Assembly (NCBI GenBank): GCA_019636675.1
Contig: JAHBXC010000001.1
Coordinates: forward strand, 868,001 to 932,000
DNA: 64,000 nucleotides
Direction: 5' to 3'
DNA from: Phycisphaeraceae bacterium
Lineage (GTDB): Bacteria; Planctomycetota; Phycisphaerae; Phycisphaerales; UBA1924
Positions within the stretch are counted from its first letter, which is position 1; every line of letters begins with the position of its first letter. Positions 6,669-64,000 of the stretch are shown here, in pieces. The notes beneath the pieces were generated by a model. The model worked only from the letters and a program-made list of their open reading frames with translations. It was not told the origin of the DNA and searched no databases. The position numbers were made by a program, and so were the translations under genes.

Positions 6669-8288
6669 TTATCGGACGCAGCTGACGCCGAAGTTCGAGA
6701 GCACGATGTTGAGGTCGCTGAAGTTCACCACGCCGTCGTTGTTCGCGTCGCCCACGATGCCGGCGCCGGTCTGCCCGAAGGCCGAGAGCACCGCGTTGAG
6801 GTCGGCGAAGTTCACGACATTGTCCCCGTTGGTGTCGCCGGGGCACACCACCGGCAGCAGCGCCTGGAGGGCGGCGACGTCGGCCATGGTGACCGGCTCC
6901 GCGTTGGTCCCGCCGGGGCCGTCGGCCTCGTCCATGTCGCGCATCATGAGGATCTGCTGGAACTCGCCCACCTGCCACTTCCAGTCGAGGAGCTGGAAGT
7001 CGTCGTTGGGGTTGTCCGGCGTGCCGGGGTCGATGGTGCGGAACTCGGTGTCGTCGAGCGTCGCGCCGAGGCGGGAGACGATCAGGTCGAGGTCGGCCTG
7101 ATCGACGACGCCGTCGAAGTTGAAGTCGCCGCGCACGAAGCGGAACTGGCGGATCTCGCTGTTGGTCGGGTGATCGTTGAACCCGCCGGGGGTGAGCCGG
7201 AAACCGGTGACATCGAGGTCGTCGAAGAGGAACTCGCCGGCCGGGTTCTGCCCGCAGCCGGTCGGGGGAACGCCCTCGGGCTCGGGGTCGCACGAGCCGT
7301 CGTAGCGAGGCCCGTTGGGATCGGTCGGGGCCTTGGTCTGCACGAAGCCCTCGGTGTCGACGCCGGTGTTGTAGGCCAGGGTCGAGAGGACGGGCACCTC
7401 GCCGTACACGAACGACTCGTCGGCGATGCGCGAGAAGACGATCTCGAAGCCAGCGTCGGTCGGGCGCGAGCGGTGGCCGCGCTGCGGGTTCGTCACGAAG
7501 TAGTTCAGCCGGCTGACGGCGTCGGGGTTGAAGCCGGAGGTGTCCGACATGACCTGCTGGCGGGAGCGGGTGTACTCCTTGCCGCCGGTGTGAGACCACG
7601 CGAACTCGTCGACCGACTGGTAGGGCTGCATGACGCGCGCGCCGCCGCCCTCGAAAGGCAGGCCGAAGTCAACGACCTCGTCGTAGTTGACGTCGTGGTT
7701 GACGTCCTTGCGCCAGGCGTAGCCGGGGGCGTAGACGCTGCGCCCCATGGCGTTGATCGAGTGGTTCGGACGCTTGCGCACGAGCACATAGGTGGACGAC
7801 CCGTCGTTGGCGAGGTTGCCCACGGTGTCGGTCGTCGGGATGTGGAGCGCCGCGAAGGCGATGCCGTTGAGCCAGCGCCGGTTGGTCAGCGAGTCGGGCA
7901 TCGCCGGGTTCCACGCCGGGTTGGGCGTCAGGAAGGTGTTGCCGACCGACGAGAACCCGGCGGTGTTCGCGTTGACGATCGCGAAAACACCGTTCTCAGG
8001 GAGCACGATCCCGTCGAGCGCGAAGGCCTCATCGATCTCCTGCCCCTCGACCTGAATCCCGTTGACGAAGTACCCGCCCTTCAGGACGGCGACGGCGTAG
8101 CCGGTCAGGTCCATGCCGGGCTTGCCGTAGAGCTCGATGAACTCCCAGACATTGTCGATCGAGCCCGAGCCCGGGGGGTTCTCGAAGATCTCGTTGATCA
8201 CGACCTGCGCGCTCGCGCCGGTCGACACGCTCAGCCCGCACGCCGCGACGATCGCGGCGGAAAGCAGTCTCTCACGAATAGAACGCAT
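6669..8288 (-). CDS. Exported lamin-tail-like protein with tandem dockerin repeats
   Basis: A 539-residue protein. The ATG at 8288 has AGAGGAG about 8 nt upstream and opens a signal peptide (RERLLSAAIVAACGLSV...ASAQ). Directly after cleavage comes VVINEIFENPPGSG followed by WEFIELYG, the start of a lamin-tail-type (LTD) beta-sandwich often found on secreted bacterial proteins. The middle is unassigned. The last 57 residues are two dockerin-type Ca-binding repeats (GDTNGDNVVNFADLN and GDANNDGVVNFSDLN) ending in SNFGVSCVR. It lies 68 nt downstream of the pseudopilin-like gene on the same strand and is probably co-transcribed with it. Dockerins suggest Ca-dependent docking to a partner on the cell surface; the partner is unknown. 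Confidence 0.82.
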   Translation of the reverse strand: MRSIRERLLSAAIVAACGLSVSTGASAQVVINEIFENPPGSGSIDNVWEFIELYGKPGMDLTGYAVAVLKGGYFVNGIQVEGQEIDEAFALDGIVLPENGVFAIVNANTAGFSSVGNTFLTPNPAWNPAMPDSLTNRRWLNGIAFAALHIPTTDTVGNLANDGSSTYVLVRKRPNHSINAMGRSVYAPGYAWRKDVNHDVNYDEVVDFGLPFEGGGARVMQPYQSVDEFAWSHTGGKEYTRSRQQVMSDTSGFNPDAVSRLNYFVTNPQRGHRSRPTDAGFEIVFSRIADESFVYGEVPVLSTLAYNTGVDTEGFVQTKAPTDPNGPRYDGSCDPEPEGVPPTGCGQNPAGEFLFDDLDVTGFRLTPGGFNDHPTNSEIRQFRFVRGDFNFDGVVDQADLDLIVSRLGATLDDTEFRTIDPGTPDNPNDDFQLLDWKWQVGEFQQILMMRDMDEADGPGGTNAEPVTMADVAALQALLPVVCPGDTNGDNVVNFADLNAVLSAFGQTGAGIVGDANNDGVVNFSDLNIVLSNFGVSCVR

Positions 8289-8356
8289 CGCTCGTCTCCT
8301 CTTCCAAAGAAGCCCGGCGTCGCGCCGCGCGGACGCGCCCGCCGGGAGGGTTTCCG

Positions 8357-9313
8357 TCACTGGATGGGGCTGGGCTCGCTGAGCCAGCCGCCGTAGACCG
8401 CGCCTTCGAGCTCGTCGTACACGAGCCGGCCGGTGGATGTGTCGAAGCGCATGCCCCACTCGCCGTCGCGCTCGCCGTTGGTCGGCTTGCTGTCCTTGAA
8501 GGTCGCGACGTGCCCGTCGGCGAAGGCGATGTTGCCCGTCAGCTTGTCGGTCCCGCGGCTGAACACGAAGGAGTCCCTCCCGTGCGCCGGGCCGAGGTCG
8601 TCGTAGTCCTGCCTGTCCCAATAGCCATTCGCGCCGACGATGGGCCCGTCCGTGAGCGCCTTGATCACGCGACGGCGCTCCCCGAGAAAGGTCCCCTGCT
8701 CGGTGGCGTTGGTCTTCGCGTCGCCGAACAGAGGGATGATCGCGGCGCCGATGGTGTCGACGTACTTCGTGCTGAGGGGCCCGATGACGCCCTCGGTCCT
8801 GCGCGGGTCGAGCGACAGGTTGCGATGCGATTTCATCCCGGTGTACGCCATGTACCACGACTGGGCGTAGTTCGTGTTGTAGCCAGCCACCAAGAGCCGC
8901 TCCTGATCCTCGATGCGCACCGATTCCCAGGGCCTGTCATTCAGGCGCTCGAACGACATGTTCTGGTTGTCTTTGACCGGGTGCGTCGGGCAGAGCAGCT
9001 GGCCGGGGTTGGCGTACTCGCCTCGGATGAAGTCGGCCATCCAGCCCGTCGTGCGGATCGGCCCGTAGCCGTTGCGCATGCGGTTGTCGGACGGGCCGGT
9101 GCTGAACAGCCCTTTGTGATCTCCCGTGTGCGAGACCGCGGCGTTCGCGAGACTGCGCAGGTTCGCCATGCAGCGGACCGCCTGCGCCTTGTCCTTCGCG
9201 ACGCTCAGCGACGGAAGGAGGATGCCGATCAGCAGCGCGATGACGCTGACGACGACGAGCAGCTCGATAAGCGTGAAACCGCGGCGCGGGTGGGGAGCGT
9301 GCGTGTGGTGCAT
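8357..9313 (-). CDS. Pseudopilin-like protein (prepilin N-terminus, ADGHV tail)
   Basis: A 318-residue protein with the type IV prepilin/pseudopilin leader RRGFTLIELLVVVSVIAL. Cleavage is predicted between G12 and F13, and Glu17 is the usual +5 residue. The C-terminal half ends with FADGHVATFKD, the short signature of the large planctomycete family of prepilin-type proteins known as H-X9-DG. Substrates of this kind are processed by a prepilin peptidase and anchored in the inner membrane; the family's role is not well established. The ATG at 9313 is chosen because the leader starts 10 residues later. No strong Shine-Dalgarno is visible. It faces the choice-of-anchor I gene across a 223-nt divergent promoter region. 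Confidence 0.85.
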   Translation of the reverse strand: MHHTHAPHPRRGFTLIELLVVVSVIALLIGILLPSLSVAKDKAQAVRCMANLRSLANAAVSHTGDHKGLFSTGPSDNRMRNGYGPIRTTGWMADFIRGEYANPGQLLCPTHPVKDNQNMSFERLNDRPWESVRIEDQERLLVAGYNTNYAQSWYMAYTGMKSHRNLSLDPRRTEGVIGPLSTKYVDTIGAAIIPLFGDAKTNATEQGTFLGERRRVIKALTDGPIVGANGYWDRQDYDDLGPAHGRDSFVFSRGTDKLTGNIAFADGHVATFKDSKPTNGERDGEWGMRFDTSTGRLVYDELEGAVYGGWLSEPSPIQ

Positions 9314-9536
9314 GAATGACCGCCGTGCGAGGGTGCCTTCGCCGCCGACGATGGTCGCGACCGTGCGAACCACCGTGAAGGGCGTCAGAGTAAGCCGGCG
9401 CGCGGTCCATGACTGTTCGCCACGGTGAAGATTGCGCGAAGCCCGGCGCATCGCGCGAAGATCTTCACGGTTCCTTCGCGTGATCTTGACATTGTGAAGA
9501 ACCCTCGCGCCGAGTCACGCACTACGTTGATGGTTC
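9314..9536. promoter_or_regulatory. Divergent intergenic region with repeated GTGAAG boxes
   Basis: This 223-nt stretch separates the minus-strand pseudopilin-like gene from the plus-strand choice-of-anchor I gene. GTGAAG occurs at 9375, 9425 and 9494, and in inverted form at 9463-9468. The 9425 and 9463 copies extend to an 8-bp inverted repeat GTGAAGAT/ATCTTCAC. A TTGACA is at 9486, but no -10 element is at the proper distance. Regulator binding is inference. Confidence 0.4.
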
Positions 9537-11225
9537 ATGCCCGGAACCTCACCAAGCCTCGCCTGCGCGTGCGCGCTGGGCGGTGTCATCCTCGCGACAC
9601 TCGCGAGCGCCGCGTCGGCGCAGGACCGCGCGAGGACCCTGCGCGAGCGCCCGCTGCTCACGCGCCTCGGCGTGGTGTCGCTGGCGTCGGTCGAGATCCC
9701 CGCCTACGACGAGTCGAGCAACATGGTCTTCGCGGTCGCCGGCGACGACGTGGCGATGATCCACCTGGGCGACGGCGCCTCCCCCCTGCTCGTGCGCACG
9801 CTCGGCCTGGCGGCGCAGAGCGCGTTCCCCCCCGGGATGAAGGCCGAGGTCACCCACGTCGCGCTCGACCCGCTGCGGCGCGGGTTCGCGGCGGCGACCG
9901 TGGTCCCGGAAGACTTCGCCGGGGTCCCGGGCGTCGCGCTGCTCTTTTCCACGCGCACCGGGCGAGTGCTCTCGCGGTTCGTCGTCGGGTATAACCCCGA
10001 CGCCGCGGCCTTCTCGCCCGACGGAGAACTCCTGCTCGTCGCCAACGAGGGCCAGCCACGCGTCACGGCGCAGGGCGTGCTCGTCGACCCGCCAGGATCG
10101 CTCAGCGTGATCTCACTCTCGGGCGTCGGGAGCGAGTTCGACTGCGCGCGGCTCACGCAGTCGCGCGTCACGACCGTGTATTTCGACGGCGACGCCCTCG
10201 CCGACGCGCTCAAGGCATCACTCGACAATCCGCGTGACCGGTTTCTGCGCGTGCACCCGCGACATCGCGCGTCGCCGACGCTCGATCTCGAGCCCGAGTA
10301 CATCGCGTTCATCGGCGACGGCGCGTACATCACGCTGCAGGAGAACAACGCCGTCGCGCGGTTCGACCTGGGCTCGATGCGCTTCGATAGGATCGTCGGG
10401 CTCGGACTGCTCGAGCAGGCGATCGATCCGTCGGACGCCGACGGGCCCGGCGCCGCGTGGGAAACGGTTCTGGCCGCCCCCATGCCCGACCAGCTCGCGT
10501 CCTTCAGCGTCGACGGGGTGTGGTATCTGATCACCCCGAACGAAGGCGACGACCGTGGGCGCTTCGGGCGCGCGAACAACCCCCTTGGCGACGAGATCCG
10601 CGTGCGCGAGCTGCCATCGACGCTCCGCGTGTCCAGCGCGCTTCGCGAGAGGATCGAGAGTTCGCCGGCCCTGCACGACCTGAAAGTCTGCGCCCACAGC
10701 GGGGACTTGGACGCCGACGGCGCGATCGACCAGCCGGTCACGATGGGCTCGCGCAGCGCTTCGGTCTGGCGCGTCGCGTCTGATGGATCGCTGGAACGCG
10801 TCGCCGACACCGGCGACCTGTTCGAGCGAACGATGGCGTCGGTCGCACCGGACCGATTCAACGCCAACGGGAACGCTCGCGCCGAATCGCGATCGACGGC
10901 GCGCGGTCCAGAGCCCGAAGGAATCGCGCTCGCGTCCCTGAGAGGCAGACCCGTCGCGTTCATCGGGCTGGAGCGCCCCGGCGCGATCGCGGCGCTAGAC
11001 CTCTCCGATCCGGCCAACCCCAGTCTGATCGACCTGCATGTCTCTGCCGACGAAGGGGATATCGCGCCGGAGGGGATCTGCTTCATCCCGGCGCATCACA
11101 GCCCGACCGGTCGCCCGCTGCTGATCGTCGCGTACGAAGTGTCGGGGACGATGGCTGTGTACGGCATCGCGGATGTTGAAGATTTCGTGAGCGCCGCGGG
11201 CGCCGCGCGCGATTCGGCGCAGTGA
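9537..11225 (+). CDS. Choice-of-anchor I domain protein
   Basis: A 562-residue exported protein. A signal peptide (CALGGVILATLASAASAQ) is followed by a beta-propeller-like body with the hallmarks of the choice-of-anchor I family: LLVANEGQP, EPEYIAFIGDGAYITLQENN, MPDQLASFSVDGVWYLITPNEGD (split here for length) and PEGIALASLRGRPVAFIGLER. Known members are secreted and carry varied C-terminal anchors; here no PEP-CTERM or dockerin tail is visible and the protein ends shortly after the propeller. The ATG at 9537 has no clear Shine-Dalgarno. It stands alone on the plus strand, divergent from the pseudopilin-like gene. Confidence 0.85.
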   Translation: MPGTSPSLACACALGGVILATLASAASAQDRARTLRERPLLTRLGVVSLASVEIPAYDESSNMVFAVAGDDVAMIHLGDGASPLLVRTLGLAAQSAFPPGMKAEVTHVALDPLRRGFAAATVVPEDFAGVPGVALLFSTRTGRVLSRFVVGYNPDAAAFSPDGELLLVANEGQPRVTAQGVLVDPPGSLSVISLSGVGSEFDCARLTQSRVTTVYFDGDALADALKASLDNPRDRFLRVHPRHRASPTLDLEPEYIAFIGDGAYITLQENNAVARFDLGSMRFDRIVGLGLLEQAIDPSDADGPGAAWETVLAAPMPDQLASFSVDGVWYLITPNEGDDRGRFGRANNPLGDEIRVRELPSTLRVSSALRERIESSPALHDLKVCAHSGDLDADGAIDQPVTMGSRSASVWRVASDGSLERVADTGDLFERTMASVAPDRFNANGNARAESRSTARGPEPEGIALASLRGRPVAFIGLERPGAIAALDLSDPANPSLIDLHVSADEGDIAPEGICFIPAHHSPTGRPLLIVAYEVSGTMAVYGIADVEDFVSAAGAARDSAQ

Positions 11226-57771: not shown

Positions 57772-58314
57772 TCACGCGGGCGTTGTTCTTTCCCCGCCGC
57801 ACTCCGGGCACGACGCGCCGTCGCGCAGCCCGGAAAGGTCGTACCCGCACGAGACGCACGCCCCGCGCCGCACGCGCCTCCCTCGCGCGAGCAGACCCGC
57901 CCCGCCCACCACAAACAGCGCGCCGCCCGACCCCCACACCACCCACGCCGGCGCGCGCAACAGCAGCACCTTGTCGAGCCCGTGCTCGCGCAGCGCGTAC
58001 ACCGCACCGCTGCCCATCCCCACGCGCGTCGGCCCGCCCGGCGTCCAGGTCACCACCCCGGCGCCCGGCACATACACAAACCTCGGCTGATCGTCCGGCG
58101 GCCTCGGATCGATCTGCAGGTTCATGTAGGCCAGCGGCCCAGCGCGATCCGGCCGAGCCAGAAACGACATCGACCCGTCCACCAACCGCGCCCACACCGG
58201 CGTCGGCGCAGAACTCCACTGCGCAATCAACCCCAGCGCGAGCGCCGCCGCCCCGACGACCGCCAACGCCACGCTCGCAACCACCCTCGCTCGCCCCCGC
58301 CGCTTCCTCGTCAT
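57772..58314 (-). CDS. Membrane protein with C-terminal CGYDLSGL zinc ribbon (second of pair)
   Basis: A 180-residue protein: N-terminal transmembrane helix (VVASVALAVVGAAALALGLI), a soluble part of about 85 residues with WTPGGPTR, a second transmembrane helix (APAWVVWGSGGALFVVGGAG) and a terminal zinc ribbon CVSCGYDLSGLRDGASCPEC. The start at 58314 has GGAG 7 nt upstream and overlaps the stop of the preceding gene as ATGA. It is a paralogue of that gene with the same layout. The CGYDL ribbon is widespread in planctomycetes; its ligand is unknown. Confidence 0.75.
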   Translation of the reverse strand: MTRKRRGRARVVASVALAVVGAAALALGLIAQWSSAPTPVWARLVDGSMSFLARPDRAGPLAYMNLQIDPRPPDDQPRFVYVPGAGVVTWTPGGPTRVGMGSGAVYALREHGLDKVLLLRAPAWVVWGSGGALFVVGGAGLLARGRRVRRGACVSCGYDLSGLRDGASCPECGGERTTPA

Positions 58315-58916
58315 CGCGCCGCTCCACATTCAGGACACGCCGCGCCCTCGCGCAGACCTCGCAGGTCATACCCGCACGACGCGCACGAGTTCGGCCCGAC
58401 GCGCGAGCGCCGCCGCGCGATCACCAGCCCCGCGCACCCCATCAGCGCCGCCACCCCAGGGCCCCACAGCCACGCCGGATGAATCATCACGAGCGTCACG
58501 CGCCCGGGCGCCACAGTTGCCGCAATCTGGATCCGCGCCGGACGCGAGGGCGACACCAGCGACACCACGAACGGGCTCGGCACGATCGACCCGTCCGGCT
58601 TCACCGAGTGCATCACGACATCCGGCGGCTGCCACTCGATCTTCCCCGTCGCGTACCCCGGGGGCCAGGTCCTGTACCGGAACGGCCGCATCGTCGACAT
58701 CGACATCGTTCCCGGGAAGAACAGCGAGCGCGACCCCCACTGCGACCCCGCCCCGGTGATGTGCGCCGGAAACGCCGGATATGACACCGACGCGAGCCGC
58801 GCGCCGAACTGCGAGTACACCCCCAGCGCAACCAGCGCCACGCCGGCCGCGAAGAGCCCGGCCACACCGAGACCGACCGTCCGTCGCTTCTTCATACTCG
58901 CGCCTGCAGATTTCAT
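58311..58916 (-). CDS. Membrane protein with C-terminal CGYDLRGL zinc ribbon (first of pair)
   Basis: A 201-residue protein with an N-terminal helix (VGLGVAGLFAAGVALVALGV), a soluble region (GSRSLFFPGTMSMSTMRPFR), a second helix (WLWGPGVAALMGCAGLVIA) and the zinc ribbon CASCGYDLRGLREGAACPEC. The ATG at 58916 is used; an ATG at 58895 is a possible alternative. It overlaps its paralogue at 58314 by 4 nt and is divergent from the large operon at 59135. Function unknown; the shared layout implies the two act together. Confidence 0.75.
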   Translation of the reverse strand: MKSAGASMKKRRTVGLGVAGLFAAGVALVALGVYSQFGARLASVSYPAFPAHITGAGSQWGSRSLFFPGTMSMSTMRPFRYRTWPPGYATGKIEWQPPDVVMHSVKPDGSIVPSPFVVSLVSPSRPARIQIAATVAPGRVTLVMIHPAWLWGPGVAALMGCAGLVIARRRSRVGPNSCASCGYDLRGLREGAACPECGAAR

Positions 58917-59134
58917 CGCACCCAGCATACCAACCAAACAACGCAAACAACACCCGATCGCGATGGCTCAGATTTGAGACAGAACTACGCAGAAGTGCGC
59001 ACATTTGTGACACGCCACCCTGCCAGCCGGGGGGAGCACCAGGATTTGTCGCGTTCTGCGACAAAATGGCTTGCAGAAACGAGACTGAACGATCATCCTT
59101 GGTGCACGCCCCCCTTGGCGACCGGGAGACTCAC

Positions 59135-60613
59135 ATGGGACCGTGCAGTACGACGCTCCGCCTCGCGCCCGCAATCGTCATTGCCTCACTCTCGTGCCTG
59201 GCGAGCGACGGCCACGACGACAACGCCCCCGATGGCTTCGGTCATGTCATCACCTTCAAGCCCGATTGCCTCCAGAGCCATTACCAGGTCCGCGCCCTCA
59301 CACGCAAGCCCGACGGCACGATCTGCCGCGAGATCGGACCCATCGACCTCACCATCCACCGCGCCATGCCCAGGTCCGTCACCTTCGGCGGCGACAACCA
59401 CACCATCCACCACGACGCCACCGGCCACGCCTACGACGCCCCGCACTGGCTCGACTTCGACCGCGACGGCCAGATCACCGCCCCGCCCCAATCGCCCCCG
59501 AGCGCTACCGGCGTCGACCGACGCTTCCCCATCGCCTACACCCGCAACACGCCCATGACCATCGCCGCCTTCGAGCCGCACTTCTCGAAGGACGCCTTCG
59601 GCGGCATGCCCCAGCCCGGCGACTACACGATCAAGGGCACGGGCTCCGACGGTTCGGTGTACCTGCTCGGCAGACAGGGACTCACCGGCATCGGCTCAGA
59701 ACCCCTGCCCGACCACATCGCCTACCTGCCGAACTACAGCATCTCGTGGGAGATCTCCTTCGACGGGACATACCTGTGGTATGACCTAGGGACGACGACG
59801 CATGAGGTGTATGCCACGCTGAACAACCCGATACCAAGCGCACCTATCTTTCAGACACCGCTATTGCACACCACGGTTCACATTGGCTGCACGGCCGCAG
59901 AAGGACAGAGCGGAGCAGACCTGCCCAATGTCTACAACAACATTTGGCAGCGCTTCGCCACCCGACAGATCCGAGCCCTTGGACACGACGAACCCATGAC
60001 CTACTACAGAGTCTGGACGACATCGACCGTGACAGCACGTCAACTGGTCGGATCTCAAGATGGACAGTGCGGCGCTTGGAATTTGCTGTTTATCGAGACG
60101 CTTCTTGCACAGGGAATTTCAAGCCAGAACGACTATTCAATTATTTGGGCAGAGCACAACAATTACAACCGCGGCTTCTTCGTTCCGAATTGGCTCTTCT
60201 CAGGACCAGGCGTATCTGGCGATCCATCCTTCCCATTCCTGATCATTCACAGTGCTGGATGGAGCACGGCTGGATACCCAACAATCTGGACCCAGATCGA
60301 AAGCCAGCCGGGCATTCCTGGACAAGGATGGCCGGAACCGAAATCAAGCTTTGCGAATCATCACGTCACACTTGTCAACAACAAGGTATACGATCCGTCG
60401 TACGGCGTTACCTACCAAGACTTTGCCGACTTCAAGGACAATTTGGCAGGGTTTTGGAAACTTGTACACAATCACCCTGTTCACGAAGAAGACCTTGGAG
60501 TCGATCTGAATGGCAACGGCAATATGACAGATATTTTTACGCTTCAAGTCATACTTGGCGCCGAGAACTCTCCGGCCCACGGGATCGATGCTACCGTCTT
60601 CACTTCTCATTAG
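59135..60613 (+). CDS. Exported protein with possible Cys-His-Asp (transglutaminase-like) centre
   Basis: A 492-residue protein whose ATG at 59135 has GGAG 7 nt upstream. The N-terminus is signal-peptide-like (TTLRLAPAIVIASLSCLAS). The first half carries beta-rich sequence (HVITFKPDC, PGDYTIKGTGSDGSVYLLG). In the second half GSQDGQCGAWNLLFIETLLA places C312 before a helix, and NHHVTLVNNKVYDPSYGVTY supplies H410 and D420; this Cys...His...Asp order and spacing resembles the transglutaminase/papain-like fold. The end includes VDLNGNGNMTDIF. It is the first gene of a tight operon. The catalytic reading is inference. The DNA changes composition near 59740: the second half is clearly AT-richer than the first. 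Confidence 0.72.
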   Translation: MGPCSTTLRLAPAIVIASLSCLASDGHDDNAPDGFGHVITFKPDCLQSHYQVRALTRKPDGTICREIGPIDLTIHRAMPRSVTFGGDNHTIHHDATGHAYDAPHWLDFDRDGQITAPPQSPPSATGVDRRFPIAYTRNTPMTIAAFEPHFSKDAFGGMPQPGDYTIKGTGSDGSVYLLGRQGLTGIGSEPLPDHIAYLPNYSISWEISFDGTYLWYDLGTTTHEVYATLNNPIPSAPIFQTPLLHTTVHIGCTAAEGQSGADLPNVYNNIWQRFATRQIRALGHDEPMTYYRVWTTSTVTARQLVGSQDGQCGAWNLLFIETLLAQGISSQNDYSIIWAEHNNYNRGFFVPNWLFSGPGVSGDPSFPFLIIHSAGWSTAGYPTIWTQIESQPGIPGQGWPEPKSSFANHHVTLVNNKVYDPSYGVTYQDFADFKDNLAGFWKLVHNHPVHEEDLGVDLNGNGNMTDIFTLQVILGAENSPAHGIDATVFTSH

Positions 60614-60622
60614 GGCGAGCAC

Positions 60623-61669
60623 ATGAAAGACCCCATTCACCGTCATATTTTGATCTGCCTCTCGCTCCATTCGCCGGCTTCGGCCGAACCCCTTGCCGGC
60701 ACTGCGAGATGGCCGTCGCAGTTTCATGTAATGCAAGATACCGCCGCGGACACCCGGACTCGTCACGATGCCGAAGATGCTCTCAAAACCGCGCCGCCAG
60801 CCTTCATTAGGACGCTCTTTTTCTCCCTCGACGATCCCGTCGAAGGCCTCCCTGCGGAAACCCTGATCGCGCTCCATCCGGGGCTCCCGAACCGCGAGTG
60901 GGAGTTGCAGCACTTCCCGTCAGCGCCGCAGGTCGTGTATGCGCGCCTGCGACTCTGGGATCATCTCACCAGGCACGCAGAGCCAGCCGCAGACCGTGCA
61001 CGCATCATCGCAGACCTTTTCCCCGAAGCGTCATCGGATTTCCAGAGACGATTGCTGCTGCAGGCAGCGCGCTCGAGCTGGTCGCCCGAGATCGAACAGG
61101 CCGTCGGCGCATGGCTTCTCGATCGCGCCTTGCCGTGCGACATCCGAGAGTTCAGCGCCAGGTCGCTCGGCCTCTTTGCGTACTCCGCGTGGTACGACGG
61201 CATCCTCGACGAGGCGTGGGCGCTCCGGGATGACCCCTGCGCGGCGCGCATCGTTTCCCCGCTCGCCACCACTTCGCCGGGCGTCAACAACCGCTTTGAT
61301 CCCCGTGTCGCCGTGCTGCTCGCGGACAACTTCGAGGCGGCCCTCCGCGAAGAAGACCCCAGTGCGGCGTCATTCCGCGCCGTCGTACTCGGAGATTATC
61401 TCCGTGTGACATTGACCCCGCCCCTCGACTCGCCCCTCGACCCGGGGGGCGAGGAGTGGCAATGGACCATCATCTCGATCGCTTCCGATTGGCTCACTCA
61501 GCATGCGCCGGGGCTCGAAGCCGATGCGGAGCGAGCCGCCCATGGCGACAGAATCGCTCGCCGCCACACAGACCCTCGGTGGATCCACAGCCGCGAGGAA
61601 AGCGTCCTACGCGCTCATGAGCACCAGCGTTTGCTTCGGGAACGCTCGATTCCCCAGCCCGAGCCATAA
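60623..61669 (+). CDS. Exported helical protein, paralogue 1 of the 59-64 kb operon
   Basis: A 348-residue protein with a signal-peptide-like N-terminus (HILICLSLHSPASAEPL). The body is mostly helical with pairs of amphipathic helices (HDAEDALKTAPPAFIRTLFF, ARLRLWDHLTRHAEPAADRA, RIIADLFPEASSDFQRRLLL, DEAWALRDDPCAARIVSPL), suggesting an alpha-solenoid. The tail contains SDWLTQHAPGLEADAERAAH. It follows the 59135 gene after 9 nt and precedes its paralogue after 5 nt. No named family is recognised. Confidence 0.72.
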   Translation: MKDPIHRHILICLSLHSPASAEPLAGTARWPSQFHVMQDTAADTRTRHDAEDALKTAPPAFIRTLFFSLDDPVEGLPAETLIALHPGLPNREWELQHFPSAPQVVYARLRLWDHLTRHAEPAADRARIIADLFPEASSDFQRRLLLQAARSSWSPEIEQAVGAWLLDRALPCDIREFSARSLGLFAYSAWYDGILDEAWALRDDPCAARIVSPLATTSPGVNNRFDPRVAVLLADNFEAALREEDPSAASFRAVVLGDYLRVTLTPPLDSPLDPGGEEWQWTIISIASDWLTQHAPGLEADAERAAHGDRIARRHTDPRWIHSREESVLRAHEHQRLLRERSIPQPEP

Positions 61670-61674
61670 CCGCG

Positions 61675-62739
61675 ATGATGCACAACCTTCTCACCCTGCT
61701 CTGCCTTCTTACGCCTGTCTGCGTTCAGCCCGGCATCGATCATCTCTCGCTACCTCCGTCTTCCCAACGCACCGCCCCCTCGCACGAAGACACCTTCCGC
61801 GTCATGAACGACGCCGCAGCGACCATCGAAGCGCGACACGCGGCCGAAGACCTGCTCCTCGCCTCGAAGCCCGTTCACCTGATACCCGTCGTCTTCGCCG
61901 CGCACGACGAACCCGTCCCCACGCCCGACGGCTTCCACTTCAACCCCTCCGCCATCAGCATGTTCCCCGGGGGCCCGAACCGCGATGTCGAAGCGCAGAT
62001 CCTCCCCGTCGGCGCGCAGATCGTGTACGCCCGATTCAGGATCTGGGAGTCCCTCGTCAGGAACGCACAGCCAATCGAAAGACGCGTGGAGATTCTCGGC
62101 GATCTGTTCCCGCTCGCGGACTCTGAGATGAAACTTTCCATGCTCCTCGACGCATGCACCTGGAATTGGTCGGAACATATCGAGGCGCATGTCCTCGAGG
62201 CGCTTCTCGATCATTCAAACTCCTGTCGCGTGCGAGCAACTGCGGCGCAGGTTCTCAAAATCCACACCATGGGAAAGCACCTCGAATCCGCACTCGCGGC
62301 AGCATGGGCGCTCAGGGGCGATGACTGCGCGATAACCATCGCCGGGAGCATCATCAATCCGGGCACGGGCTCCCCCCCGTATTACGACCCGCGCTTTGCC
62401 GTGCTGCTTATCGATCAGTTTGATCGCGCGCAAAGGGCTGGCAACCCTGCCATCGCAATGACCGCTGGTCGCCGCCTCGCCGACTACCTCCGCTTCACCG
62501 TCGTTCCCTCGGCCGACTTGCGACTCTCCGTCCGCTCCGACGCGTAGCGCGATCATGTCATCCACACCACGAAGACCTGGCTCGACGAGCACCGCGAACG
62601 CCTCGAAGCCGACGCCGCCAAAGCCGCCGCGGGCGACAAACCCGAGCGCCTGCCCGCCCAGCCCGGCTGGAAGCACTACGACCACGACCACGCCGAACGA
62701 ATCATGCGCGAGAACATCGAACGAACGAAACAGCGATGA
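61675..62739 (+). pseudogene. Paralogue 2 with an in-frame TAG (nonsense-interrupted gene)
   Basis: The frame opens at ATG 61675, five nt after paralogue 1, and runs 290 codons to TAG at 62545-62547. Beyond it the same frame stays open for 63 codons to TGA at 62737-62739. The downstream part (HTTKTWLDEHRERLEADAAK, AAAGDKPERLPAQPGWKHYD) matches the tail of paralogue 1 (ASDWLTQHAPGLEADAERAA), and aligned from the right the TAG falls on a tryptophan codon (TGG) in the sister gene. The upstream part is also homologous (ARHAAEDLLLASKPVHLIPV; QIVYARFRIWESLVRNAQPI; AAAWALRGDDCAITIAGS). The distal TGA overlaps the next gene's ATG as ATGA, a sign that it was the original stop. A 290-residue truncated product may still be made. 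It is either a recent nonsense mutation, read-through, or a base error. Confidence 0.75.
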
Positions 62740-63590
62740 CCCGAGAGTTCGTCTCAATCCTGATGATGGTCATCGCCGACATCGGGTGCGCCGCCGCTCC
62801 ATTGCCCGACTCGCCGAATGCAACGCGCGGGATCGTGATCGTCTCACTCCAACCCGACTGCATACCGAGCCCCGACCGCCCCGCCTTCGACCGTCTCGCC
62901 ACGCTCCCGAACAGCGCGATCCCCGATCTCCTCGCACACGAAGACCCGATCCTCCGCGGCGTCGGGATCTTCCTCGCCGATCAGCGACAACTCCCCGAAC
63001 TCCTCCTCGGGGCGACCCACCTGATCGACGACGACCGCCCCACCGTCCCCGCCGCGATCTGCGGCCCAAACCCGTCGCAGTTCCACTCCCAGCCGATGAC
63101 CGTCCGCGAACGCTTCCTCGAAACCTGGCTCGCGTGGACCGGTGAAGGCATCAAGGATCACAACGATTTCGAGGCCCGCTTCGTCACCACCGGGTTCGAT
63201 CCGTGGTCGCGCCTTCACGCGTGGCGTCTGGCGATGCGCCGCGGCGCCAGCGAAACGCCGGAGAACGCAGCCGCCATCAAGGCGCGCATCGCGTCCCTCC
63301 CCGATGACGCCCGCTGGCTCGTCGCCGTCGCGTCGCGCGGCTCGGCGCAGGGCCAGCGCTTCTACACCGAGCAGGAAGTCCGCGAACTCGTGCTCTCCGT
63401 GGACGCGGCCACCCGGCAGGCCATCCTGAACGAGACGGCGCCCGTGCTCAGCGATGTCACCGAACGCGCCGGTGCGCACGAGACCTTCTACCACAAGCAG
63501 GCAAAGGCCATCCTTGAAGGCAAACCACTCCCCGAACCGACGATCCCGCCCGAGTTCGAGCGCTTCCGGCGCAACCTGAACCCGGATTGA
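62736..63590 (+). CDS. Exported protein of unknown function, second paralogue pair (member 1)
   Basis: A 284-residue protein starting in the ATGA overlap with the preceding reading frame. The N-terminus is short and hydrophobic (FVSILMMVIADIGCAAAPL). Mature sequence begins IVIVSLQPDC, a motif shared with HVITFKPDC of the operon's first gene, then LATLPNSAIPDLLAHEDPIL and RGVGIFLADQRQLPELLLG. Helical segments follow, including PWSRLHAWRLAMRRGASETP and LVLSVDAATRQAILNE. It is homologous to the partial gene at 63714. No family name is recognised. Confidence 0.7.
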   Translation: MTREFVSILMMVIADIGCAAAPLPDSPNATRGIVIVSLQPDCIPSPDRPAFDRLATLPNSAIPDLLAHEDPILRGVGIFLADQRQLPELLLGATHLIDDDRPTVPAAICGPNPSQFHSQPMTVRERFLETWLAWTGEGIKDHNDFEARFVTTGFDPWSRLHAWRLAMRRGASETPENAAAIKARIASLPDDARWLVAVASRGSAQGQRFYTEQEVRELVLSVDAATRQAILNETAPVLSDVTERAGAHETFYHKQAKAILEGKPLPEPTIPPEFERFRRNLNPD

Positions 63591-63593
63591 TGG

Positions 63594-63686
63594 ATGCCGC
63601 TCATGATTCACGCTTTGTTGTGCGTGGTTTCCAGCAGACACATCGCCGCGGCGGGTGAGAAACCCGAGCTGACGAAGAACCCATGA
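63594..63686 (+). other. Short open frame, possible gene remnant
   Basis: Thirty codons, with MIHALLCVVSSRHIAAAGEK looking like a start fused to a tail; AAAGEKPELTKNP resembles AAAGDKPERLPAQP near the end of paralogue 2. It may be a relic of another array member. No ribosome-binding site is evident. Confidence 0.3.
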
Positions 63687-63713
63687 ACCCAGCGCCGCGA
63701 ATCGACTGACGCG

Positions 63714-64000
63714 ATGAAACGACTGATCGTGCTCCATCTCGCCGCCGGTCTCTCGATCGCGCTGTCCCCGACGCCCTGCGCGGCGCCCTCCGCCGGGACT
63801 CAGTCCCGCGCCGAACCCGCCCGGCTCGCCAACGCGGTCACCGTTCTCCCCGTGTACGAAGACCGCGACTGCTTCACCCCCGAGCAACTCGCCGCCGTCG
63901 AGGCGCTCGACGCCATCCCCGACGAGCAGATCGAAACCCTCCTCACCTCGGACGACTCGTGGGTCGTCGGGATCGGGATTCATCTCGCCGATGTGCGCCT
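63714..64000 (+). CDS. Exported protein, second paralogue pair (member 2; cut by window edge)
   Basis: Only the first 95 codons are present. A signal peptide (LIVLHLAAGLSIALSPTPCA) is followed by CFTPEQLAAVEALDAIPDEQ and IETLLTSDDSWVVGIGIHLA with DVR, which parallels the 62736 gene (CIPSPDRPAFDRLATLPNSA, IPDLLAHEDPILRGVGIFLA, DQR). It is therefore a tandem paralogue, 123 nt after its sister on the same strand. The 3' part lies outside the window. Confidence 0.7.
   Translation, partial: MKRLIVLHLAAGLSIALSPTPCAAPSAGTQSRAEPARLANAVTVLPVYEDRDCFTPEQLAAVEALDAIPDEQIETLLTSDDSWVVGIGIHLADVR

What the first reader, a model, noticed from the sequence alone, without database searches (positions are those of the whole stretch)
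59135..64000. Operon of exported proteins built from two paralogue pairs behind a cysteine-triad protein
Five genes lie head to tail with gaps of 9 and 5 nt, an ATGA overlap and 123 nt. The first has a plausible Cys312-His410-Asp420 centre. The next two are helical paralogues of each other, and the following two form another paralogue pair. A PDC motif near the N-terminus (FKPDC, LQPDC) links the first and fourth genes. All appear exported. This looks like a locally expanding secreted system with one enzyme-like member and several solenoid-like partners; nothing known to me matches it.
Basis: partly seen in the sequence, partly recalled or inferred. Interest (0 to 1): 0.65.

Follow-up and report, generated by a model that had tools for sequence, protein, structure and literature searches.

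The report
Exported transglutaminase-like protein with swappable partners
A planctomycete operon encodes an exported enzyme-like protein shaped like animal transglutaminases such as clotting factor XIII, followed by a string of exported companion proteins; in relatives from several bacterial phyla the same domain is nearly always followed by a small companion gene of varying kind, the layout of bacterial toxin-and-antidote systems.

Summary
The operon is real and longer than reported: an exported transglutaminase-like protein (g1), two helical-looking paralogues (g2, g3) and four copies of a helical exported family (g4-g7); g5 runs off the window, g6 and g7 lie beyond it. The conserved residues are C312, H409 (not H410) and D420, invariant in 30 aligned sequences. 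The model of g1 best matches TG2, TG3 and factor XIII, beta-sandwich plus core. The PDC link is not supported.

Relatives occur in several phyla. Of 44 module ORFs, 40 have an adjacent same-strand ORF and 37 an exported-looking one (controls 52 of 273); the partners form 22 sequence clusters. The module ends the protein in nearly all. In Akkermansiaceae the same N-terminal body carries either this module or a different C-terminus, each with its own exported partner. Two loci keep a module remnant beside a partner, and some tandem partner paralogues are mosaics, synonymous sites included.

Best reading (0.58): a Sec-exported polymorphic toxin with exported immunity proteins and, here, a polyimmunity-like string. 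Toxicity, neutralisation, substrate and delivery are untested. Main rival: an enzyme with its dedicated inhibitor.

The parts
59135..60613 (+). g1: exported transglutaminase-like protein, 492 aa (signal-like N-terminus, beta-sandwich, transglutaminase-like core)
59351..59827 (+). g1 beta-sandwich region (model residues 52-210; beta strands in the model)
   Evidence: boundaries read from the secondary structure, approximate
59867..60553 (+). g1 transglutaminase-like core (model residues about 224-452)
   Evidence: boundaries approximate
60068..60070 (+). codon of the invariant C312 (GQCGAW), first residue of a helix in the model
60359..60361 (+). codon of the invariant H409
60392..60394 (+). 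codon of the invariant D420 (YDPSYG)
60623..61669 (+). g2: 348 aa, weak signal-like start, paralogue of g3, no relative found outside this genome
61675..62547 (+). g3: 290 aa paralogue of g2, ended by an in-frame TAG at 62545-62547
62548..62739 (+). reading frame after the TAG of g3, still similar to the C-terminus of g2
62736..63590 (+). g4: first of four paralogous exported helical (HEAT/ARM-like, weakly supported) proteins, family P
63714..64000 (+). g5: family P, cut by the window end (continues to 64571 in window numbering; L002:6715-7572). g6 and g7 follow outside the window (L002:7603-8478 and 8483-9352)

Best explanation
g1 is the effector of a Sec-exported polymorphic toxin-immunity type system, and g2-g7 are its immunity-like partners. 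Shown by computation: g1 has a transglutaminase-like fold with invariant C, H and D; the same beta-sandwich-plus-core module sits at the C-terminal end of exported proteins with otherwise different N-termini in several phyla; an exported-looking small gene of varying family starts directly downstream in most loci; in Akkermansiaceae the module is exchanged for a different C-terminus on the same body, each with its own exported partner; remnants of the module occur beside partner genes; some tandem partner paralogues are mosaics. Inferred: the module attacks an extracytoplasmic target of competing cells (cross-linking, deamidation or cleavage at glutamine-type amides), the partner binds and blocks it in the producer's periplasm, and the string g2-g7 is a polyimmunity-like set left by past exchanges or kept against variants of the toxin. 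Not shown: catalysis, toxicity, neutralisation, target and the route out of the cell.
For: (1) Module and motif: C312, H409, Y419, D420, P421, Y423 and G424 are invariant in a 30-row alignment (positions are alignment residue numbers plus 21); model of g1 pLDDT 76.3, pTM 0.81 with the cysteine at the first residue of a helix; the six Foldseek PDB matches at E<=0.001 are all transglutaminases, best E 3.7e-5, and the first 14 rows of the second look are TG2, TG3 or factor XIII, best Z 8.9, rmsd 8.5, 272 aligned. (2) Partner rule: of 44 module ORFs with enough downstream sequence, 40 have an adjacent same-strand ORF of 150 aa or more and 37 of the 44 an exported-looking one, against 135 and 52 of 273 control genes from the same loci (Fisher p 5e-17 for the exported-looking counts); 22 partner clusters at phmmer E<1e-3. 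The loci were chosen by the module, not by the partner (and searches). (3) Position: the module ends within 36 residues of the stop in 41 of the 47 ORFs listed before exclusions for contig ends (exceptions: L065 91, L073 79, L075 1966) - counted by me from that table, see full report. (4) Swap: homology between TGase proteins and L130 stops at residue 546 of L059, 495 of L061 and 640 of L069, where the module HMM alignment starts at 554, 502 and 658; L130 has no module hit, and its exported partner starts at an ATGA overlap; L059 and L130 come from one genome, G762. (5) Remnants: L058 has a C-terminal module remnant followed by a second partner of the same cluster; L018 has a second copy without catalytic domain followed by a second, partly near-identical partner. 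(6) Mosaics: R1/R2 91% identical at protein level in the second half and 28% in the first, fourfold sites 68/81 against 12/27; g5/g7 and c2b/c2d likewise. (7) Published precedents: Sec-exported toxins, Imm-HEAT in planctomycetes, strings of immunity genes at toxin 3' ends, polyimmunity loci (PMC3482391, passages read). L064 carries a second, N-terminal transglutaminase core whose expected cysteine position is not a cysteine by eye, like the inactive N-terminal transglutaminases of polymorphic toxins described there.
Against: No toxicity or binding data. No recognised delivery apparatus or secretion-type domain was found next to g1 beyond its signal-like start. Four of 44 loci failed the partner criterion (L063, with a 136 aa signal-bearing ORF; L071; L075; L080), and three more partners scored below the export threshold, including g2 directly behind g1 (L002 row, 1.66), plus L059 and L076. 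Two counted neighbours look unrelated by eye (L062 a peptidase-like membrane protein, L081 a thioredoxin-like protein). The swap was seen in one bacterial family only; no exchange of the body of g1 itself was seen. Family P also occurs without a module nearby in G042 and G026, which fits orphan immunity genes but also an unrelated function. g2/g3 have no relatives elsewhere among 101 genomes. Mosaicism may simply reflect gene conversion in any tandem array; no array of ordinary genes was examined as a control.
Confidence: 0.58

Rival explanations
1. Enzyme and dedicated inhibitor without warfare: a secreted transglutaminase-fold protease or cross-linker used for nutrition or wall turnover, with the exported partner as a zymogen-type inhibitor or folding partner that protects the producer.
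For: The same adjacency, export of both proteins and invariant triad are expected; the superfamily holds many proteases (PMC10318531, passages read).
Against: Does not readily explain the exchange of the C-terminus on one body with a different partner, the remnants beside partners, or 22 partner clusters.
Confidence: 0.22
2. Enzyme and substrates: the transglutaminase cross-links the partner proteins into an extracellular or periplasmic scaffold, and the array supplies building blocks.
For: The best structural matches are cross-linking transglutaminases; partner expansion in the own genome.
Against: The seven proteins are poor in lysine (2 to 8 each), which a Gln-Lys cross-linker would need; partner families vary from locus to locus; most loci show a single adjacent partner in the tables inspected.
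Confidence: 0.1
3. No common system: a widespread secreted domain whose neighbours are ordinary exported proteins, with the array of g4-g7 a local duplication of no special meaning.
For: Exported genes are common near these genes (52 of 273 controls); some neighbours look unrelated (L062, L081).
Against: 37 of 44 against 52 of 273; family P lies directly behind the module in all 9 distinct fetched loci that have it, including a Myxococcota-labelled record.
Confidence: 0.1

Closest known systems
Animal transglutaminases (TG2, TG3, factor XIII A) and the transglutaminase-like superfamily (PF01841)
   Same: Best structural matches over beta-sandwich plus core; Cys at a helix start; C, H, D order. 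Weak profile link: 4 of 30 members reach PF01841, best E 0.011.
   Different: About 10% identity to the matched structures; g1 itself has no Pfam hit; rmsd 8-10 over the two domains; C to H is 97 and H to D 11 residues; linked to exported partners; activity unknown.
Polymorphic toxin systems (Zhang et al. 2012, PMC3482391), including polyimmunity loci and Imm-HEAT
   Same: C-terminal module, exported body, downstream partner, strings of partner genes, helical-repeat partners, exchange on a constant body in one family.
   Different: Toxicity unproven; partners are themselves exported; no known secretion-type leader or RHS stalk on g1; the paper reports extended polyimmunity loci only from proteobacteria, bacteroidetes, firmicutes and actinobacteria.
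Tox-TGase effectors named in the same paper
   Same: Transglutaminase-like catalytic domain used as an effector, as described there (passage read).
   Different: Not compared by sequence here; no such effector was fetched. The module here carries a beta-sandwich and exported partners.

Membership tests
Transglutaminase-like superfamily | Catalytic Cys, His, Asp in that order, conserved | tested here: met
   C312, H409, D420 invariant in 30 of 30 rows
Transglutaminase-like superfamily | Papain-like transglutaminase core fold | tested here: met
   Model matches TG2/TG3/FXIII: Foldseek E 3.7e-5, Z 8.9 rmsd 8.5 over 272; Z is moderate
Transglutaminase-like superfamily | Score above the Pfam gathering cut-off of PF01841 | tested here: not met
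   g1 none; 4 of 30 members with best E 0.011. The profile is one detector of the superfamily, not its definition
Transglutaminase-like superfamily | Catalytic residues close together in space | not testable with these tools
   Model coordinates are not given; only secondary structure around C312, H409, D420 was seen
Animal-type transglutaminase (enzyme) | Protein cross-linking activity, calcium dependence | not testable with these tools
   needs protein
Polymorphic toxin system | Effector module at the C-terminus with an immunity gene directly downstream | tested here: met
   Layout only; that the partner is an immunity protein is not shown
Polymorphic toxin system | Constant N-terminal body joined to different C-terminal modules | tested here: met
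   Met in Akkermansiaceae; not seen for the body of g1 itself
Polymorphic toxin system | Displaced module remnants with partner genes | tested here: inconclusive
   Two loci, L058 and L018
Polymorphic toxin system | Known trafficking domain or secretion system | tested here: inconclusive
   Only signal-like N-termini on g1 and stalk-like repeats in relatives; no targeted search for secretion loci was made
Polymorphic toxin system | Toxicity and neutralisation by the cognate partner | not testable with these tools
   needs experiment
HEAT/ARM repeat proteins (family P) | Recognisable HEAT or ARM repeats | tested here: inconclusive
   1 of 8 members reaches HEAT_2 at E 0.13; model all-helical with a beta hairpin, armadillo designs first in Foldseek but E 0.034 and best Z 7.8 to Prp38. 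One other partner (L067) has HEAT above cut-off

The most novel reading that the evidence does not exclude
A widespread, unnamed class of Sec-exported antibacterial toxins whose warhead is a factor-XIII-like two-domain transglutaminase that cross-links or deamidates envelope proteins or peptidoglycan of rivals, each guarded by an exported immunity protein that can be a helical solenoid, a beta-propeller-like or another fold, with producers in Planctomycetota keeping mosaic immunity arrays whose variable segments define specificity.
Probability: 0.25. Interest if true: 0.82.

Novelty: new variant of a known kind. Interest (0 to 1): 0.66.

Why it matters
If right, it adds a toxin module with the two-domain architecture of animal transglutaminases to the interbacterial arsenal, with immunity exported to the envelope, and gives Planctomycetota and Verrucomicrobiota, whose antagonism is little explored (own knowledge), a testable toxin-immunity family. 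It also offers natural enzyme-partner pairs, possibly specific inhibitors of a transglutaminase fold. If the toxin reading fails, a near-universal exported enzyme-partner pairing across several phyla without a curated Pfam or NCBIfam family for the window members still needs explaining.

Tried and rejected
Pfam, NCBIfam and PADLOC scans of the seven proteins gave nothing usable. A first scan of genome contigs with g1 alone found no relative; an alignment of nearer rows (A2) then gave 39 loci. Profile-profile comparison found no relation between families P, Q (g2/g3) and R, so the partners are not shown to be one superfamily. Rejected: the PDC link; one shared solenoid family for g2-g7; reading g3 through its stop as a normal gene. 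In the structure searches of g4 no PDB match reached E 0.001 and VIA rows stayed at Z 7.8 or less, so its solenoid nature is a lead. Whether other genes lie next to the module as often was controlled; whether tandem arrays of ordinary genes are equally mosaic was not. Literature searches for this pairing; from their listings and the passages read no paper describes it, in this open-access library only. Of PMC3482391 I read passages and section 19; of PMC10318531 passages; all other papers only as search listings.

Rows dropped before the 44-locus count: records judged duplicates (L017, L038, L041, L042, L052), L084, ORFs whose module match ended before profile position 345 (so without the DPSYG part), and loci with under 400 nt downstream and no ORF (L019, L040). 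L058 counts twice (full copy and remnant). Related loci such as L048-L051 are counted separately, so the Fisher p overstates independence.
Full report
Observation. The window is G000:C1:868001-932000 of a 3.3 Mb assembly. Sequence beyond the window shows that the run continues: g5 (L002:6715-7572, 285 aa), g6 (7603-8478, 291 aa) and g7 (8483-9352, 289 aa), after which an ORF on the other strand begins at L002:9368. The operon therefore has seven genes: g1, g2/g3 (38% identical) and g4-g7 (g4 29-30% to the others, g5/g7 65%, g6/g7 51%, g5/g6 44%). g3 carries an in-frame TAG at 62545-62547; the frame after it still matches the end of g2.

The enzyme-like protein. No Pfam family hits g1 even at E 5. 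A search of 101 related genomes found a second copy in the own genome (G000:C2) and copies in three others; profile searches found 5 of 400 genomes of the order and 9 of 392 of the phylum. A scan of genome contigs with alignment A2 gave 39 loci labelled Planctomycetota, Verrucomicrobia/Akkermansiaceae, Acidobacteria, Myxococcota, Armatimonadetes, Bacteroidetes/Flavobacteriaceae, Alphaproteobacteria, Desulfobacterales, Fibrobacteria and others; most are metagenome-assembled, so labels are those of the records. In a 30-row alignment the invariant columns are C, H, Y-D-P and Y-G, that is C312, H409, Y419, D420, P421, Y423, G424 of g1. Four of the 30 members touch PF01841 (best E 0.011), and the profile's best PDB hit, far from significant (E 0.64), places the cysteine motif on that of a peptide N-glycanase. 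The AlphaFold2 model (pLDDT 76.3, pTM 0.81) has a beta-sandwich followed by a core in which the cysteine is the first residue of a helix. Foldseek's six matches at E<=0.001 are all transglutaminases; in the second look the top 14 rows are TG2, TG3 and factor XIII, Z 8.9 to 6.1, spanning both domains at rmsd 7.8-10. The large rmsd means the relative placement of the domains is uncertain; the fold assignment rests on the consistency of the hits plus the motif.

The partners. Family P (g4-g7) is directly downstream of the module in every fetched module locus that has it: own C1 (behind g2/g3), own C2 (four tandem copies), L047, L048, L049, L050, L051 (and its near-identical L052, cut by the contig end), L053 and L057, that is 9 distinct loci. 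P was found in 8 of 400 genomes of the order and 4 of 392 of the phylum, several only marginally; in G042 and G026 it has no module nearby. P evolves faster than the module: in 35 of the 36 locus pairs the P identity is lower than the module identity, and in one (c2a with L049) they are equal at the rounding shown. The g4 model is helical with one beta hairpin; matches to armadillo, HEAT and related helical folds are weak. g2/g3 have no relatives in 101 related genomes.

A general rule. Looking downstream of all module ORFs, including ones far from family P, I found that a small exported-looking gene nearly always follows. Counted with fixed rules, 40 of 44 module ORFs have an adjacent same-strand ORF of at least 150 aa (start between -61 and +100 nt) and 37 of 44 one with a signal-like N-terminus, against 135 and 52 of 273 other genes of the same loci (Fisher p 5e-17, not corrected for relatedness). 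The signal test is a crude hydrophobicity window, applied alike to cases and controls. The 40 partners fall into 22 clusters at phmmer E<1e-3, 15 of them single; one has HEAT repeats above cut-off (L067), others look beta-propeller-like by eye. Failures: L063 (a 136 aa signal-bearing ORF, below the length limit), L071, L075, L080; partners below the export score: the g2 row, L059, L076. L062 and L081 are probably unrelated neighbours. In one search, which lists 47 ORFs, the module reaches to within 36 residues of the end of the ORF except in L065 (91), L073 (79) and L075 (1966, a 5772-residue ORF); this includes ORFs cut by contig ends or frameshifts. (My evidence field says 41 of 47 for the same table; counting the three listed exceptions gives 44 of 47, and 44 of 47 is the figure to use.)

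Exchange. N-terminal parts differ: dockerin-like repeats by eye in the C2 copy, Ig-like domains (L055), TSP3 repeats (L059, L061, L069), a second transglutaminase core (L064). Searching the genomes of four verrucomicrobial loci with the TSP3 body of L069 turned up L130 in G762, the genome that also holds L059. L130 shares the body (54% identity to L061 over residues 29-495, 40% to L059, 43% to L069), but the homology stops where the module begins (546 against 554 in L059, 495 against 502 in L061, 640 against 658 in L069), L130 has no module hit, and it is followed at an ATGA overlap by a different exported gene. L131 in G763 shares a shorter part of the body and also has a different C-terminus and an exported downstream gene. 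In G764 a 206-residue TSP3 body piece lies upstream of an ORF with RHS repeats (PF05593, E 1.7e-36), a known polymorphic-toxin architecture.

Remnants and mosaics. L058 holds a full module with its partner and then a frame with only the DPSYG end of a module, followed by a second partner of the same cluster. L018 (G086) holds a full copy with partner R1, then a copy that ends before the catalytic part, with partner R2. R1 and R2 are 28% identical in the first half and 91% in the second, fourfold-degenerate sites 12/27 against 68/81 identical (Fisher p 2e-4). g5/g7 alternate between blocks of high and low identity (fourfold 63/74 in two blocks, 5/16 in the middle one, p 4e-5), and c2b/c2d show 21/28 against 9/37 (p 6e-5). 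Block limits were chosen after seeing the plots, so these p values are descriptive. Because synonymous sites follow the pattern, recombination or gene conversion, not selection on amino acids alone, is needed.

Mechanism. Most likely (0.58) g1 is an exported effector and g2-g7 are immunity-like partners. The layout, exchange and remnants match what Zhang et al. describe for polymorphic toxins, including strings of immunity genes left at toxin 3' ends, Imm-HEAT proteins in planctomycetes and Sec-exported toxins (PMC3482391, passages read); that paper did not report extended polyimmunity loci from planctomycetes. Export of both proteins suggests action in the envelope. What the enzyme does, to whom, and how it leaves the cell is inference or unknown. 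An enzyme with its own non-warfare inhibitor (0.22) is the main rival.

Novelty. Fold and general system type are known; the family, its exported partners and the planctomycete array are, to the extent, undescribed. I rate it a new variant of a known kind.

Noticed in passing
window 57772-58329 and 58311-58946 (-): Two adjacent small exported-looking paralogues ending in a CxxCGYDLxGLxxxxxCPECG zinc-ribbon-like motif, divergent from g1.
   Followed up: no
L064:5288-11140 (Desulfobacterales record): Carries a Pfam transglutaminase core near the N-terminus (E 7.9e-18) in which no cysteine is seen at the expected place, and the C-terminal module of this report.
   Followed up: partly
L075:2-17317: An open frame of 5772 residues with an internal, not C-terminal, copy of the module.
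   Followed up: no
L132:729-7264 (-) (G764): RHS-repeat protein of 1824 residues next to a 206-residue TSP3 body piece and small exported-looking ORFs.
   Followed up: partly
L016:9533-12906 (-) (own genome, contig C2): Four tandem family P genes behind a second module protein whose N-terminus has dockerin-like repeats by eye.
   Followed up: yes
L103:7740-8651 (-) and L104 about 8953-9681 (+): Family P genes without a transglutaminase-like gene nearby.
   Followed up: partly
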